A stretch of DNA of 39,960 nt from Clostridia bacterium. GTDB taxonomy: Bacteria; Bacillota; Clostridia; TANB77; UBA1234. How positions within the stretch are numbered: the stretch's first letter is position 1; the number at the start of each line of letters is the position of its first letter. The notes under the pieces were generated by a model. That model did no database searches. It saw only the letters and a program-made list of their open reading frames with translations, and was not told where the DNA came from. A program made the position numbers and the translations under genes. Where the stretch lies: assembly GCA_017469465.1 (NCBI GenBank), contig JAFUGH010000059.1, positions 1 to 39,960 of the forward strand. Reading direction: 5' to 3'. This document shows positions 15,331 through 38,483 of this stretch, one piece after another.

Positions 15331-15402
15331 GGCGGAGAGTTAAGGCAACAGGCCAGGTTCATAACCTGGTATAAGATGGTTCGATTCCATCCTCCGCAAC
15401 CA
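15331..15402 (+). tRNA. tRNA-Met-like (anticodon CAT), shortened D arm
   Basis: 72 nt with encoded CCA. The acceptor GGCGGAG/CTCCGCA has six pairs plus a G1 x A72 mismatch. The anticodon stem is CCAGG/CCTGG with loop TTCATAA (CAT), the variable loop is TATAA, and the T arm is GATGG/CCATC with loop TTCGATT. The D region is only 15 nt (GTT/AAC stem, AAGGC loop with the GG pair), far shorter than normal. The 1x72 mismatch with G2:C71, C3:G70 and G4:C69 and discriminator A73 matches formylation determinants of initiator tRNA, but only two G:C pairs abut the anticodon loop (A29:U41). Elongator Met or Ile-CAU cannot be excluded. Confidence 0.8.
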
Positions 15403-32983: not shown

Positions 32984-34258
32984 ATGGCATATGGAGTTAC
33001 TTATATAACTACACAAGGAGCTATCTTGGCAGCCAAAACCTTACAATCTAAAACATTAGAGTTTTCAAGATTTAAAATAGGAAGTGGTTCATTACAAGAA
33101 GGAAGTGTAGCTGAAATAAAAGCCTTGACTGACTTGGTAGATGAGGAAATGGAATTTGCTATTACTAAAATTTCAAGAGAGTCTGCAACACAAGTTACTG
33201 TTAGAGGTTTATTTAGAAATACTGATGCTGAAAATGGATTCTGGTTAAGAGAATTAGGTTTATATGCAATAGATCCTGATACTGAAGACGAGATTTTATT
33301 TGCATATATAAACTATGACTCTGAAGCGGAATATATAAACAATTCAATATCAGAGAAAAAAGAGCATTACTACGATATGATAATTACTGTAGATAATGCA
33401 AACAATGTAACAATAACTGTAGATCCAAGTACAGTATATGTTACTGAAGAAGATTTGCTTGAAAAAGCAGACGAATTACAAGATGATTATGATGCAAAAT
33501 TTGCAGACTTAAAATCAATAGTTGTCGCATCAAATGCAGGAGGACATAACGCAATATATAGAGGAAAAGACATTACTGATTACTATTATGGAAACGAAAC
33601 ATATAATGGTAAAACATTTAGTGAAGCTGTTGCTGATGGATCTTTCGATAATATATTCCCTGGTGATTATATTATAGGCCAGAATAGTAATAGAAAATAT
33701 TTAGTTGCTGACTTAAATTATAGATTAAATTGTGGAGATACTGAATGCACAACGCCTCATGTTTTAATGATACCTGAAAAAATAATGGGTACAGCAAAAA
33801 TGAATGATTCAAATATAACAACTGGGGGCTATAAAGGAAGCAAAATGTACACAGATTATTTAACACCATTTAAGACTGTAATAAATAATGACTTTGGAGC
33901 AGGACATATTTTAAGTCATAAAAACTTGCTAACAAATGCCGTCTCAAATAATGCATCTAGTGGTTGGGAATGGCTTACATCAACAATAGAACTTATGAAT
34001 GAGTGTATGGTTTATGGGCACAATGCTTGGGGAAGTCATCACGGATATGAAACTGGAATTGATAAAAGACAATTATCATTATTCAAATTAGATCAAAGCA
34101 AAATAGTAGCAAGAAATGATAATAATGAGAGATATTGGTACTGGTTGAGAGATGTGGTTTCTTCTACGCACTTCGCTCTTGTGCTCAACGGCGGTCATGC
34201 GAACGGCAGCGGCGCTTCGAACTCTTATGGCGTGCGTCCTGCTTTCCTAATCAAATAA
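32984..34258 (+). CDS. Tail fibre with DGR-diversified C-type-lectin-like tip
   Basis: 424 aa. Residues 1-160 are a phage tail-collar (DUF3751-type) domain (KTLEFSRFKIGSGSL, GLFRNTDAENGFWLRELGLYA). A short coiled linker follows, then a DUF6273-like C-type lectin fold domain (about 200-424), with YWYWLRDVV and a terminal GVRPAFLIK. Residues 390-421 are encoded by the variable repeat (34152-34246); 396, 399, 401-403, 405, 407-410, 413 and 415 are AAY-derived positions. It is the receptor-binding protein whose tip is re-edited by the downstream retroelement. Confidence 0.93.
   Translation: MAYGVTYITTQGAILAAKTLQSKTLEFSRFKIGSGSLQEGSVAEIKALTDLVDEEMEFAITKISRESATQVTVRGLFRNTDAENGFWLRELGLYAIDPDTEDEILFAYINYDSEAEYINNSISEKKEHYYDMIITVDNANNVTITVDPSTVYVTEEDLLEKADELQDDYDAKFADLKSIVVASNAGGHNAIYRGKDITDYYYGNETYNGKTFSEAVADGSFDNIFPGDYIIGQNSNRKYLVADLNYRLNCGDTECTTPHVLMIPEKIMGTAKMNDSNITTGGYKGSKMYTDYLTPFKTVINNDFGAGHILSHKNLLTNAVSNNASSGWEWLTSTIELMNECMVYGHNAWGSHHGYETGIDKRQLSLFKLDQSKIVARNDNNERYWYWLRDVVSSTHFALVLNGGHANGSGASNSYGVRPAFLIK
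34152..34246 (+). repeat. DGR variable repeat (VR)
   Basis: 95 nt, aligned without gaps to the template repeat at 34921-35015. All 68 non-adenine template positions are identical; 15 of 27 template adenines differ (to C, G or T). The GC-rich 3' part (GGCGTGCGTCCTG) is the probable initiation of mutagenic homology. It is much richer in GC than the surrounding gene. Confidence 0.97.
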
Positions 34259-34268
34259 TCAGGCATCT

Positions 34269-34289
34269 GACAGGGCTTTATGCCCTGTC
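34269..34289 (+). other. DGR hairpin/cruciform downstream of VR
   Basis: GACAGGGC (34269-34276) and GCCCTGTC (34282-34289) form an 8-bp GC-rich stem with a TTTAT loop, 22 nt after the VR and 10 nt after the fibre stop. No T run follows, so it is not a typical terminator. Hairpins at this position promote mutagenic homing in known DGRs. Confidence 0.8.
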
Positions 34290-34336
34290 TTATAACATAG
34301 TGATTGTTTGGTAGAGTTAAATTGATATAAAAAAAG

Positions 34337-34345
34337 TGATATAAT
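34337..34345 (+). promoter_or_regulatory. Candidate DGR cassette promoter (extended -10)
   Basis: TGATATAAT (TG at 34337-34338, TATAAT at 34340-34345) in an AT-rich gap after the fibre gene. No good -35 is seen at 17 nt. It could give avd, template RNA and RT their own transcript. Confidence 0.45.
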
Positions 34346-34389
34346 CTTTTGCGAATAATTAAGCAAAGGAGAAATAGTATTATTAGGTT

Positions 34390-34902
34390 ATGTCGGATAT
34401 AAAAAAGAGTGAAAGAAAAGAGTCAAAATTAGAGGTAATACATAATGCATATGCCATAAGAAAAGCAGTAACAAAAATAGCAGAAAACAATTTTTATATA
34501 AGTGAAAGCAAGATTGAAAAAATGATTACAGAAAAAATAAAAATGTTTCCTGAAGATGATCAAGAGAGAGTAAAAGAAAGAACAAGACAATATTTTAGAC
34601 ATCAATTAAATAGAGTAACAAATAGAACTCTTGATTTTGCGTGCGGTATTAGTGAGCATTTAAGGATAGCAAACACAATATTTCCAACATATATGTCAGA
34701 ATTTGAAGAGCGAAGGTTGGAAATGGACAGAGCTATGGCCTGTTGTAATGCTTTGCAAGATGAATTACAATATGCAGGTGAGTGCTTATATGCAGACCTT
34801 AACAAATATATGAGTATTGTGTTAGATATTCAAAAAGAATTTAACATGATAAAATCACTCCGACAAACTGACAATAGGTTTTTGAAAAATATAAAAAAAT
34901 AA
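34390..34902 (+). CDS. avd: DGR accessory protein, Avd-like helical bundle
   Basis: 170 aa, all-alpha and basic, between the fibre and the template repeat, the standard place of avd. Avd forms a pentameric four-helix bundle that binds RT and template RNA. At 170 aa it is longer than Bordetella Avd (about 125). In-frame stops at 34375 and 34384 force a start at ATG 34390. The good AAAGGAG lies about 20 nt upstream, too far, so translation initiation looks inefficient. Identification rests on context and fold type. Confidence 0.75.
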   Translation: MSDIKKSERKESKLEVIHNAYAIRKAVTKIAENNFYISESKIEKMITEKIKMFPEDDQERVKERTRQYFRHQLNRVTNRTLDFACGISEHLRIANTIFPTYMSEFEERRLEMDRAMACCNALQDELQYAGECLYADLNKYMSIVLDIQKEFNMIKSLRQTDNRFLKNIKK

Positions 34903-34920
34903 TTAGTGGGTAATCTTTGT

Positions 34921-35015
34921 ATGTGGTTTCTTCTACGAACTTCGCTAATGTGAACAACAACGGTAATGCGAACAACAACAACGCTTCGAACTCTAATGGC
35001 GTGCGTCCTGATTTC
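34921..35015 (+). repeat. DGR template repeat (TR)
   Basis: Non-coding 95-nt template in the avd-RT gap. It would encode 12 AAY codons, allowing all diversified sites to sample many residues without stops. Identical to the VR at every non-A position. It is transcribed to the RNA that the RT copies with adenine errors. Confidence 0.97.
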
Positions 35016-35020
35016 ACATC

Positions 35021-35086
35021 CTATACACTTTTTTATGGACTAGATTCCATCGTATAGTATTGGGAAAGGAAAGGAAAGGTTATCCC
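35021..35086 (+). ncRNA. Structured 3' part of DGR template RNA
   Basis: Just after the TR, CTATAC (35021-35026) pairs with GTATAG (35052-35057), and inside it ATGGA (35035-35039) pairs with TCCAT (35046-35050). A purine tract follows (GGGAAAGG..., 35062-35079) and ends against TTATCCC (35080-35086), which can close on its GGG. DGR RT uses the spacer between TR and RT as the structured RNA core, so a function is expected. Confidence 0.55.
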
Positions 35087-35162
35087 TTCTGTTTGTAAAA
35101 ACTGATAAATGCTAATCATTATGTATTTGGTCACGACCAGTAATACTATAAAAGTGATTTTT

Positions 35163-36287
35163 ATGAATATTTTTTATGATGCAAATGCTATTTATGAAGC
35201 AGGAACAAAAGCAATACAAGGTGCACCTTTTAAATATGCATCACAATTGTATGAAATGAACCAATTATTAAATACAGCATTGCTTCAAAAAGAATTAAAA
35301 GAATGGAAATATAAACCATCAAAAGGAAGAAAATTTACAATAAATGAAAGAGGAAAAATAAGACATATTACAACAGACAATATGATTGATAAAACTATTA
35401 ATCATTTGCTCTGTGATAATGTTTTGAGTCCTGCTATTTCTCCTTATCTTATTTATGATAATGGTGCAAGTCAAAAAAATAAAGGTGTACACTTTCATAG
35501 AAAAAGACTAGAAATTCATTTACATCAATATTATAGGAAACACAAAACAAATGAGGGATATATTTTATTAATAGACTTTAGTGGATATTATGCAAGCATC
35601 CCTCATAATTTGTGTTTAAAAAATATAGAAACATTTTTAAATAAAATAGATGAAAATGAAAAGAAAGTTGCAATGTGGATATTAAAAAATTTATTTCAAA
35701 TATTTGATATAGACAATAAAAATGGAAAGGGTGTTGATATAGGATCACAACCAAGTCAAAATATTGGCATTGCATATCCTTCAAAATTTGATAATTATAT
35801 AAAAATAGTAAAAGGATGCAAATACTATGGAAGATACACAGATGATAGTTATGTCATTCATAAAGATAAAGAGTTTTTGAAACAACTACTAAAGGAAGTC
35901 AAAGCTATATCAAATGAATTAGGATTAGTAATAAATGATAAAAAAACAAGAATTGCAAAGTTATCTCAACCATTTAGAATTTTGCAAATAAGTTATCAAT
36001 TAACAGAAACAGGAAGAATCGCCAGGAGGATAAGTCCAAAAGCAATAACAAGGGAACGCAGAAAATTAAAGGCTTATAAAAGATTACTTAATAATGATAA
36101 ACTAAAATATGAAGAAATTGAAAACATATTTAAAAGTTGGATGTCAGGAAATTATAAAAATATGTCAATGCAACAAATAACAAATATGTATCAATTATAT
36201 TATGATTTATTTGGGAGGAAAGTTACATGGAAAAATCATGGAAAATTACGCTATCTGATGGAACGCAACTTAAAAACCTTGGATTAA
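35163..36287 (+). CDS. DGR reverse transcriptase
   Basis: 374 aa from ATG 35163; an in-frame ATG at 35109 is less likely. RT motifs: IDFSGYYASIPH (137-148), IGSQPSQNIGI (193-203; the SQ form is a DGR hallmark in motif 4), and YTDD (225-228, catalytic aspartates). There is no maturase or RNase H domain. It copies the TR RNA with adenine-specific errors into cDNA that replaces the VR. Same operon as avd and TR; the next gene overlaps its end. Confidence 0.96.
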   Translation: MNIFYDANAIYEAGTKAIQGAPFKYASQLYEMNQLLNTALLQKELKEWKYKPSKGRKFTINERGKIRHITTDNMIDKTINHLLCDNVLSPAISPYLIYDNGASQKNKGVHFHRKRLEIHLHQYYRKHKTNEGYILLIDFSGYYASIPHNLCLKNIETFLNKIDENEKKVAMWILKNLFQIFDIDNKNGKGVDIGSQPSQNIGIAYPSKFDNYIKIVKGCKYYGRYTDDSYVIHKDKEFLKQLLKEVKAISNELGLVINDKKTRIAKLSQPFRILQISYQLTETGRIARRISPKAITRERRKLKAYKRLLNNDKLKYEEIENIFKSWMSGNYKNMSMQQITNMYQLYYDLFGRKVTWKNHGKLRYLMERNLKTLD

Positions 36288-37455: not shown

Positions 37456-38452
37456 ATCAAGTTTAGCAAGTATTTATGTTCCTGCAAGTACAAATAACTA
37501 TACTCAAGGAAGAAGAGGTTATAAAGTTTGTAAAATAACACCTCATCATATGGCAGGTAAATTAACAGCAAGACAATGCGGAAATATATTCGCAAATCCA
37601 AGCAGACAGGCAAGCTCAAATTACGGAATAGGTTATGATGGAGAAATTGCTTGTTATGTAGATGAAGAAAATAGAGCATGGACTTCTTCTAATAGAGCAA
37701 ATGATTGTCAAGCTATTACAATTGAAGTTGCTAATAGTGCTAATGGAGAACCATGGCCAATAAGTGATGCAGCTTGGAATAGTTTAGTAAAATTGTGTGT
37801 TGATATTTGTAGAAGATATGGATTCAGACTTACATATGATGGAACACCAAATGGAAGCTTAACAAGACACGATATGTTTGCAAATACAAATTGTCCAGGC
37901 AAAACATTAGGTGGAAGATTTAAAGAATTAGCTGATACAGTTAACGCTCAACTTGATGGAAAAGTCGAGCCTACACCATCAACACCAAGTGGAAGTAAAT
38001 CAAACGAAGAACTTGCAGATGAGGTAATTGCAGGTAAATGGGGAAATGGTGACGATCGTAAAAATAGATTAACTGCAGCAGGATATAATTATTCTGCAAT
38101 ACAAAGCATAGTTAATCAAAAATTAAGCGGTGGATCATCTGCTCCAAAAGCATCAACAAAATCAAATGAAACAATTGCTCAAGAAGTAATAAATGGTGCT
38201 TGGGGAAACGGACAAGAAAGAAAAGACAGATTGACCGCAGCAGGATATGATTACAGTGCAATTCAATCTATTGTTAATCAAAAACTTGGTGCAGGATCAA
38301 GTTCTAATTCAAATAAAAAGTCAAATGAGACAATTGCAAATGAAGTTATAAGAGGCGACTGGGGTAATGGCCAAGATAGAAAAAATAGACTTCAAGCTGC
38401 AGGATATGACTATAATGCTATACAAGCAATAGTTAATAGAAAATTAAGCTAA
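37448..38452 (+). CDS. Endolysin: N-acetylmuramoyl-L-alanine amidase with three Cpl-7 repeats
   Basis: 334 aa, start ATG 37448 with GGGAGG. The amidase_2 domain (about 1-165) shows zinc ligands His33/34 (PHHMAG), His141 and Cys149 (TRHDMF, NCPGK). Three CW_7 (Cpl-7) repeats at about 184-226, 238-280 and 291-334 share the W-GNG-RK-RL-AAGYDY-AIQ core and bind peptidoglycan. It cuts the stem peptide amide bond at lysis. The third repeat differs most (RGDWGNG). Confidence 0.95.
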   Translation: MSRSSLASIYVPASTNNYTQGRRGYKVCKITPHHMAGKLTARQCGNIFANPSRQASSNYGIGYDGEIACYVDEENRAWTSSNRANDCQAITIEVANSANGEPWPISDAAWNSLVKLCVDICRRYGFRLTYDGTPNGSLTRHDMFANTNCPGKTLGGRFKELADTVNAQLDGKVEPTPSTPSGSKSNEELADEVIAGKWGNGDDRKNRLTAAGYNYSAIQSIVNQKLSGGSSAPKASTKSNETIAQEVINGAWGNGQERKDRLTAAGYDYSAIQSIVNQKLGAGSSSNSNKKSNETIANEVIRGDWGNGQDRKNRLQAAGYDYNAIQAIVNRKLS

Positions 38453-38483
38453 AAATTGGGGAGAATAAATCTCCCCTTTTTAT
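38452..38483. terminator. Bidirectional terminator after amidase
   Basis: GGGGAG (38458-38463) and CTCCCC (38471-38476) with flanking A's and T's form a hairpin with U runs on both strands, between the convergent amidase and MutS-I-like genes. Confidence 0.85.

What the first reader, a model, noticed from the sequence alone, without database searches (positions are those of the whole stretch)
34152..36287. Complete diversity-generating retroelement in a prophage tail fibre
Seen: a 95-nt variable repeat in the fibre gene (34152-34246), a hairpin, an Avd-like gene, a 95-nt template repeat (34921-35015) and an RT with DGR-type SQ motif and YTDD. VR and TR differ at 15 sites, all template adenines (A to C, G or T); all 68 non-A positions match. 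Known: this is the signature of adenine-specific mutagenic retrohoming (Bordetella phage BPP-1). Inference: the phage is actively retargeting its receptor-binding tip.
Basis: partly seen in the sequence, partly recalled or inferred. Interest (0 to 1): 0.95.

Follow-up and report, generated by a model that had tools for sequence, protein, structure and literature searches.

The report
Complete self-editing cassette, phage tail fibre
A bacterial virus carries a complete template-and-copy cassette, and pairs of related viruses with nearly identical surrounding DNA differ almost only at template-adenine positions in the tip of a predicted tail-fibre gene, so the cassette likely keeps reshaping the part that would grip bacteria; this kind of system is already known.

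Summary
VR and TR (95 nt) differ at 15 sites, all template adenines. In 47 distinct TR/VR pairs, 691 of 1204 template adenines but 13 of 3443 other bases are changed. Sibling phages with up to 4000 identical flanking bases differ at 9-20 VR sites, nearly all template adenines, so the family is active; this phage's own activity is inferred.

Corrections: 14, not 15, mismatches look like mutagenesis. The last (TR 35011 A, VR 34242 C) is fixed: of 46 pairs with A in TR, VR has C in 43, T in 3. The RT likely starts at 35163. The contig holds no host DNA, so 'prophage' is not shown.

Added: the TR-RT spacer is a covarying RNA without an Rfam match; the TR 3' end is complementary to a spacer purine loop in 34 of 37 distinct loci, a likely cDNA-priming duplex; the post-VR hairpin has a 5-nt YTYRY loop in 33 of 37 regions, GRNA in none. 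A new member of a known kind, with variant cis-elements.

The parts
32984..34258 (+). Target gene: predicted tail-fibre protein, 424 aa; N-terminal Phage_tail_fib (PF12571), C-terminal DUF6273 with predicted C-type-lectin-like fold
34152..34246 (+). Variable repeat (VR), last codons of the fibre gene
34229..34246 (+). Candidate IMH: invariant VR 3' end (VR positions 78-95); base 34242 is C where TR has A
   Evidence: of 47 distinct pairs, 46 have A in TR; VR has C in 43 and T in 3 of these; L103 has C in both
34269..34289 (+). Target hairpin: stem 34269-34276 / 34282-34289, 5-nt loop TTTAT 34277-34281, beginning at the 23rd base after VR
34390..34902 (+). Avd-like protein, 170 aa, predicted helical bundle
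34921..35015 (+). Template repeat (TR): 27 adenines, 24 of them in 12 AAY codons in register with the VR frame
34998..35015 (+). Candidate IMH*: TR 3' end; A at 35011 (TR position 91), C or T in VRs; UCC-UGA-UUUC is complementary to the spacer GAAAGGA
35016..35162 (+). Spacer RNA (Sp): P1 35021-35026/35052-35057, P2 35036-35039/35046-35049, P3 35062-35064/35084-35086, P4 35088-35092/35101-35105, P5a 35114-35120/35153-35159, P5b 35123-35127/35142-35146, P5c 35128-35131/35136-35139
   Evidence: covariation in 15 loci and 13 held-out loci; no Rfam match at gathering score; coordinates
35064..35079 (+). Purine loop of P3 with three GAAAGG copies (from 35064, 35069, 35074): predicted primer strand that pairs with the TR 3' end
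35163..36287 (+). Reverse transcriptase, 374 aa, IGSQPSQ and YTDD motifs (the listed ORF opens at 35109)
   Evidence: PF00078 E 1.8e-12; PHROG 1423 E 3.4e-53; best solved relative 8ub7 E 1.3e-10; tree

Best explanation
This is a complete diversity-generating retroelement whose TR and VR differ only at template adenines, and it is predicted to overwrite the tip of a predicted tail-fibre gene with error-prone copies of the template. Shown by sequence: gene order, adenine-restricted TR/VR differences, the same pattern in relatives, VR turnover between sibling phages with near-identical flanking DNA, a covarying spacer RNA, and a conserved hairpin after VR. Inferred: avd-TR-spacer RNA is transcribed; RT with Avd binds the folded spacer; the TR 3' end (UCC-UGA-UUUC) pairs with the purine loop of spacer hairpin P3 (GAAAGGA), so that a nearby spacer adenosine would prime cDNA synthesis at about TR position 85; the RT misincorporates opposite the 24 adenines of 12 AAY codons; the cDNA replaces VR at a target marked by the 3' VR sequence and the hairpin. 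Because copying would start upstream of TR position 91, the A there is not transferred, which likely keeps template and target distinct. AAY codons cannot become stops by changes at their first two positions, so about 15^12 tip sequences are reachable.
For: TR/VR. Relatives: TR/VR pairs found in 57 of 63 loci scanned, 49 distinct; in 47 (L099 and L101 dropped, see noticed) A 691/1204, C 5/1229, G 2/1069, T 6/1145 changed. Siblings: L021/L022 15 VR differences, all at A, 0 of 4000 flanking bases differ; L030/L037 19 (18 at A), 0 of 4000; L100/L102 18, all at A, 0 of 4000; L027/L028 14, all at A, 1 of 4000; L076/L077 12, all at A, 0 of 2728; L108/L109 16, all at A, 2 of 3782; L107/L109 20 (19 at A), 0 of 2107; L107/L108 16 (15 at A), 2 of 2107; L006/L008 9, all at A, 0 of 2000. 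RT. Avd fold. Spacer RNA: 94.4% of cells paired (90.0 shuffled), covariation 0.188 against 0.103, 0/500; held-out loci 86.9% against 59.7%, 34 of 39 pairs with changes on both sides. TR-spacer complementarity: 34 of 37 distinct loci, shuffled mean 1.7, maximum 6; double changes UUUU/AAAA (L016, L082, L095) and UUCU/AGAA (L018). Boundary: in the 95-nt family (19 pairs) adenines 18-76 vary, A89 is unchanged in 3 of 3, A91 is C in 19 of 19.
Against: No expression, cDNA or VR switching was measured. The priming duplex was not testable in 7 loci without the typical TR end (L021, L022, L096, L097, L103, L110, L034); L021 and L103 showed no match of 5 or more pairs and L096 one of 5. L013, L020, L099 fit only with a G-U pair or a mismatch. 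Specificity is incomplete: 7 of 30 UUUC spacers also hold AAAAGG, and of 4 UUUU spacers 1 holds GAAAGG and 2 hold AGAAGG. A second predicted helix, TR 34998-35002 with spacer 35109-35113, would compete and is only 74.5% paired in held-out loci. One covariation measure, further pair types, is not above shuffles on the 15 loci (22 against 20.5; 132/500). The RNA model gave no match in BPP-1 and none below E 0.3 in the L013-L016, L082, L084-L095 loci apart from L083 (E 0.009). The held-out alignment was fitted to the model, which favours it, and held-out loci include close relatives of each other. Avd identity rests on position and fold; no sequence match was found.
Confidence: 0.93

Rival explanations
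1. The cassette is a decayed or silent DGR: the VR differences date from past activity and the element no longer works in this phage.
For: No second genome of this exact phage was found (one pattern, 0 matches), so no present-day variation was seen; its nearest relative L025 differs by 18 VR sites but also by 3 of 95 TR bases and 31 of 673 bases between VR and TR.
Against: RT (374 aa), Avd-like and fibre ORFs are open; the spacer RNA keeps its pairs apart from one T-T mismatch in P4 (its 180 bits are by construction, as it was in the training set); upstream of VR, window and L025 differ by only 2 of 500 bases against 18 of 95 in VR.
Confidence: 0.06
2. The A-to-C difference at TR position 91 is ordinary hypermutation plus selection for alanine in the conserved VRPAF motif of the lectin domain, not a template/target discriminator.
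For: C or T there gives Ala or Val, in keeping with the GVRPAF/VRPVF ending of most relatives, and A would give Asp.
Against: In L021/L022 the change is synonymous (CGA/CGC in the reading frame) and still present in both; selection on the protein does not explain why TRs keep the A in 46 of 47 distinct pairs; A89 in the same stretch is unchanged in 3 of 3 (one lineage).
Confidence: 0.2
3. The repeats are a duplicated gene end that drifted apart or recombines, without reverse transcription.
For: TR is a near copy of the gene end.
Against: 13 of 3443 non-A sites against 691 of 1204 A sites changed; in the sibling pairs TR is identical while VR varies.
Confidence: 0.01

Closest known systems
Bordetella phage BPP-1 DGR (mtd, avd, TR, brt)
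   Same: Same gene order; adenine-restricted TR/VR; its RT is the best solved relative; Avd-like fold; spacer between TR and RT; hairpin after VR. From the BPP-1 record I read TR CC-AUC-ACCU against spacer AGGU-GG just before spacer A56, the same shape as TR CC-NGA-UUUC against GAAA-GG here; that A56 and G117 are the priming pair is recalled (Handa et al. papers, not held).
   Different: Spacer RNA does not match model R1; hairpin loop 5-nt YTYRY instead of 4-nt GAAA; one TR/VR difference in the 3' end here, against 5 mismatches in a 21-bp IMH element there (PMC3240598, passages read); target domain is DUF6273, not Mtd.
DGRs of Faecalibacterium prophages and gut 'tentaclin' phages
   Same: Gut phages with RT relatives and DUF6273 targets, with VR at the DUF6273 C-terminus (PMC11792537, passages; PMC10743442, passages).
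   Different: RT identity about 30-33% for the Faecalibacterium phages listed; avd, hairpin and stem-loop have 0 occurrences in the main text of PMC11792537.
Acutalibacter phage Fontainebleau (ON453893)
   Same: Same cassette with fibre, Avd-like (46%), TR, VR and hairpin; R1 hit of 110 bits though held out; listed among 13 induced prophages, host A. muris (PMC10197239, passages).
   Different: RT 47.5% identical and, in this record, its match to relatives is split into two pieces and reaches beyond the annotated gene; DGR and reverse transcriptase have 0 occurrences in that paper's main text.

Membership tests
Diversity-generating retroelement | TR/VR pair with mismatches at template adenines (75% or more in PMC8144416, passages read) | tested here: met
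   15 of 15 at A
Diversity-generating retroelement | RT of the DGR clade, with an xGxxxSQ motif (recalled) where group II RTs here have QGGNxSP | tested here: met
   IGSQPSQ; grouped with RTs with adenine-biased TR/VR apart from group II introns 99/99; 5 unlabelled rows in the same 42-row side (L045, L057, L061, L062, L065) also carry such repeats. Limits: 20 other unlabelled rows there are unproven, BPP-1 is on a long branch, and among NCBIfam models the best is group II (61 bits, cut-off 300)
Diversity-generating retroelement | Accessory protein Avd between VR and TR | tested here: met
Diversity-generating retroelement | VR at the C-terminus of a C-type-lectin-like domain | tested here: met
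   DUF6273 331-424; VIA rows shown are mostly C-type lectins, spanning model residues 40-245; Foldseek alone gives E above 0.1 for all but 9qa6
Diversity-generating retroelement | IMH and IMH*: matching 3' ends with fixed differences | tested here: met
   one fixed difference, 46 of 47 distinct pairs; function not tested
Diversity-generating retroelement | GC-rich inverted repeat just after VR | tested here: met
   8-bp stem; 32 of 37 distinct regions have a stem of 7 or more with 4 or more GC in the arm, against 112 of 1480 control stretches
BPP-1-type target hairpin (phage set of PMC3240598, section 10 read) | 4-nt loop GRNA | tested here: not met
   loop TTTAT here; GRNA in 0 of 37, YTYRY in 33 of 37
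Diversity-generating retroelement | RT- and Avd-dependent mutagenic retrohoming | not testable with these tools
   needs an experiment; sibling comparisons are indirect evidence

The most novel reading that the evidence does not exclude
This phage clade has its own DGR RNA architecture. The template's 3' end docks across a 3-nt bulge onto the purine loop of a spacer hairpin and primes cDNA there; the bulge holds the one adenine that is never copied, and that base is the template/target discriminator. The target is marked by a pentaloop hairpin (YTYRY) instead of the GRNA tetraloop, and the 3' spacer stem (P5a, ending 3 nt before the RT start codon, which lacks a Shine-Dalgarno core in 15 of 17 distinct loci against 13 of 29 Avd-like starts) throttles RT translation so that the same RNA serves either as template or as message.
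Probability: 0.4. Interest if true: 0.62.

Novelty: new member of a known kind. Interest (0 to 1): 0.42.

Why it matters
DGR biochemistry rests mostly on one phage, BPP-1 (recalled). A second, sequence-divergent family with 47 distinct natural TR/VR pairs, sibling phages that differ almost only in VR over the DNA compared, and a covarying template RNA lets the priming site, the template/target rule and the target hairpin be tested by comparison. An inducible relative exists in a cultured mouse-gut strain, Acutalibacter muris KB18 (PMC10197239, passages).

Tried and rejected
Drifted duplication without reverse transcription: rejected. More VRs in the assembly that holds the window: none. Near copies of this phage in viral contigs: none by one 30-base pattern. 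DGR in plasmids at blastn sensitivity: none. RNA model against 391 genomes of the class: only this one, but in the rows shown only 7 first-look candidates per genome were scored, so the miss says little; the Avd-like protein rang in 3 of 391. Avd by sequence against the PDB: only chance-level hits. BPP-1 spacer: no match to R1. Helix TR 34998-35002: 35109-35113, proposed by RNAalifold, was kept only as an uncertain alternative; so was TR GUCC with the 5' strand of P2. Exact terminal repeats of the contig: none over 10 bases. No held paper combines 'diversity-generating retroelement', 'template repeat' and 'covariation' (0 papers); the most relevant ones (Handa 2018 and 2025, Wu 2018) are not held, so I cannot say that the RNA fold or the loop class is unpublished. 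Not every comparison shows turnover: L109/L111 and L002/L003 have identical VRs and flanks, perhaps the same strain; L084/L088 differ at 14 VR sites, all at A, but their flanks lose register; L016/L095 differ at non-A sites too, with 11 TR differences, so they are not siblings.
Full report
WHAT IS THERE. The repeat pair is exactly as described: 95 nt, 15 mismatches, all at the 27 template adenines, 68 of 68 other positions identical. In the VR frame, 24 of the 27 adenines sit in 12 AAY codons; the other three are TR positions 1, 15 and 91. Fourteen of the 24 AAY adenines are changed, positions 1 and 15 are not, and position 91 is A in TR and C in VR. The order on the + strand is fibre gene with VR, hairpin 34269-34289, Avd-like gene, TR, 147-nt spacer, RT. 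The contig is the window itself, 39,960 bases, with an integrase, a repressor-like gene, terminase, portal, major head and tail proteins, XhlA-like holin and amidase: a temperate phage gene set, but no host flank.

RELATIVES. RT searches gave 23 viral and 13 bacterial-bin loci, widened with two distant RTs, the Avd-like protein and the fibre (used for fibre comparison only). A scan for adenine-tolerant repeats found TR/VR pairs in 57 of 63 loci (L007, L017, L034, L089, L093, L106 gave none). Of 49 distinct pairs I dropped L099 and L101, whose TR is itself altered. In the other 47, A is changed in 691 of 1204, C in 5 of 1229, G in 2 of 1069, T in 6 of 1145. The changes at A are G 311, C 200, T 180.

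ACTIVITY. Sibling phages give a natural experiment: L021/L022, L030/L037 and L100/L102 are identical over 4000 flanking bases but differ at 15, 19 and 18 VR sites; 51 of these 52 are template adenines. L027/L028, L076/L077, L108/L109 and L006/L008 repeat this with 14, 12, 16 and 9 differences, all at template adenines; L107 differs from L108 and L109 at 16 and 20 sites, 15 and 19 of them template adenines. TR is identical in every one of these pairs that one search compared (L107/L108 was compared only). Two pairs, L109/L111 and L002/L003, are identical in VR as well. The window's nearest relative, L025, has 2 of 500 upstream differences but 18 of 95 in VR, 16 of them at the window's template adenines; their TRs differ at 3 of 95. 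So the family is active; for this phage it is inferred.

THE FIXED BASE. TR position 91 (35011) is the last adenine. Of 47 distinct pairs, 46 have A there in TR, and VR has C in 43 and T in 3 of them, A or G in none; L103 has C in both (43 pairs were placed by an anchor that does not ask for the A, four read by eye from the same call). Other adenines are changed in 649 of 1162. In the 95-nt family (19 pairs) adenines at 18-76 vary, A89 is unchanged in 3 of 3 (L011, L076, L077, one lineage), and A91 is C in 19 of 19. In L021/L022 the corresponding change is synonymous in the fibre frame (CGA/CGC). The simplest reading is that copying starts 5' of A91, so this A is not transferred, and that the A/C pair is the local counterpart of IMH*/IMH, which in BPP-1 sets direction (PMC3240598, passages read). 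Selection for Ala/Val in the VRPAF ending remains a partial rival.

THE SPACER RNA. The 147 nt between TR and RT align well in close relatives. A nested structure was written from the alignment and counted on 15 loci: 94.4% of cells paired (90.0% shuffled), 12 pairs with changes on both sides (5.8), covariation 0.188 (0.103); 0 of 500 shuffles reach these three. The number of further pair types is not above shuffles (22 against 20.5, 132 of 500). Slid versions pair 35-61%. A model built from it finds loci not used to build it at the same place between TR end and RT start: L079 at 110 bits (E 4e-23), L107 and L109 58, L021 52, L017 49, L098 46, L106 35, L096 34, L020 28, L034 27, L100 26, L083 and L018 23 bits. 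It does not reach the rest of the L013/L014/L016/L082 group (E 0.3 or more, or no match) nor BPP-1. On 13 held-out loci 86.9% of cells pair (59.7% shuffled) and 34 of 39 pairs show changes on both sides; that alignment was fitted to the model. P5b-P5c is the strongest part (98.3% paired), the TR-spacer helix 34998-35002: 35109-35113 the weakest (74.5%). Rfam has no match there at gathering score. P5a ends 3 nt before the RT start codon at 35163.

A PRIMING DUPLEX. The TR end UCC-UGA-UUUC is complementary to GAAA-GG-A in the purine loop of P3, with UGA (holding A91) bulged. Of 59 loci looked at, 52 have the typical TR end, 37 of them distinct; 34 of these 37 have the exact cognate complement in the spacer; shuffled spacers give 1.7 on average, 6 at most. 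The pairing follows changes: UUUU with AAAAGG (L016, L082, L095), UUCU with AGAAGG (L018), and G-U or one-mismatch forms in L020, L013, L099. Of the 30 UUUC spacers none has AGAAGG, but 7 also have AAAAGG; of the 4 UUUU spacers 1 has GAAAGG and 2 have AGAAGG, so specificity is partial. In the BPP-1 record the same shape can be read, CC-AUC-ACCU with AGGU-GG, just before spacer base 56, an A, and TR base 117 is a G; that these two are the priming pair is recalled. PMC12875486 (passages) says that an internal spacer adenine primes cDNA within IMH*. By analogy cDNA would start near TR position 85.

THE TARGET HAIRPIN. Of 37 distinct 75-nt stretches after VR, 33 have as best hairpin one with a 5-nt YTYRY loop (TTTAT 13, CTTGT 12, CTCGT 7, CTTGC 1) on stems of varied sequence; none has GRNA; the other four are L020, L082, L096 (other 4-nt loops) and L103 (CGCGT). 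Of 1480 control stretches 112 have a comparable stem, 8 of them with a YTYRY loop. PMC3240598 (section 10 read) reports 4-nt GRNA loops in its eight phage DGRs and shows in BPP-1 that the loop's sequence and size matter. This clade therefore seems to use a different loop.

VERDICT. A genuine, complete DGR of the BPP-1 kind in a temperate phage. Of the 13 bacterial bins with RT relatives, nine are titled Clostridia or Clostridium and three name deer caecum or abomasum. As a finding it is a new member of a known kind. The new content is the cis-RNA anatomy, which is well supported as structure and untested as function.

Noticed in passing
L099 3295-3378 and L101 3295-3378 (TR), compared with L100: In two relatives of a distant phage group the template repeat itself is altered: 12 of 12 and 3 of 3 TR differences lie at adenines of the L100 template. 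Possible self-targeting or erosion of the template; assembly mixing is not excluded.
   Followed up: partly
L098, L107-L111, between VR and TR: No ATG-started ORF of 70 aa or more lies between VR and TR, so these DGRs may lack Avd there or use another start; L107-L109 VRs still vary almost only at adenines.
   Followed up: no
35153-35163: The RT start codon lies 3 nt after the P5a stem and lacks a Shine-Dalgarno core, as in 15 of 17 distinct loci; 16 of 29 Avd-like starts have one.
   Followed up: partly
L079 4001-5186: The annotated RT of Acutalibacter phage Fontainebleau covers only part of the match to relatives, which comes in two pieces and runs past the annotated gene; sequence error or decay.
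   Followed up: no
15331-15399: A weak Rfam tRNA match (31.7 bits, cut-off 29) that ARAGORN does not call.
   Followed up: partly
37997-38458: Three tandem 141-nt repeats at the end of the amidase gene, which has three CW_7 matches.
   Followed up: no
L045, L051, L057, L061, L062, L065: Genomes of the same order, picked up with the window RT, carry adenine-biased repeat pairs in the stretches around their RTs, so other, distantly related DGRs occur in the order.
   Followed up: no
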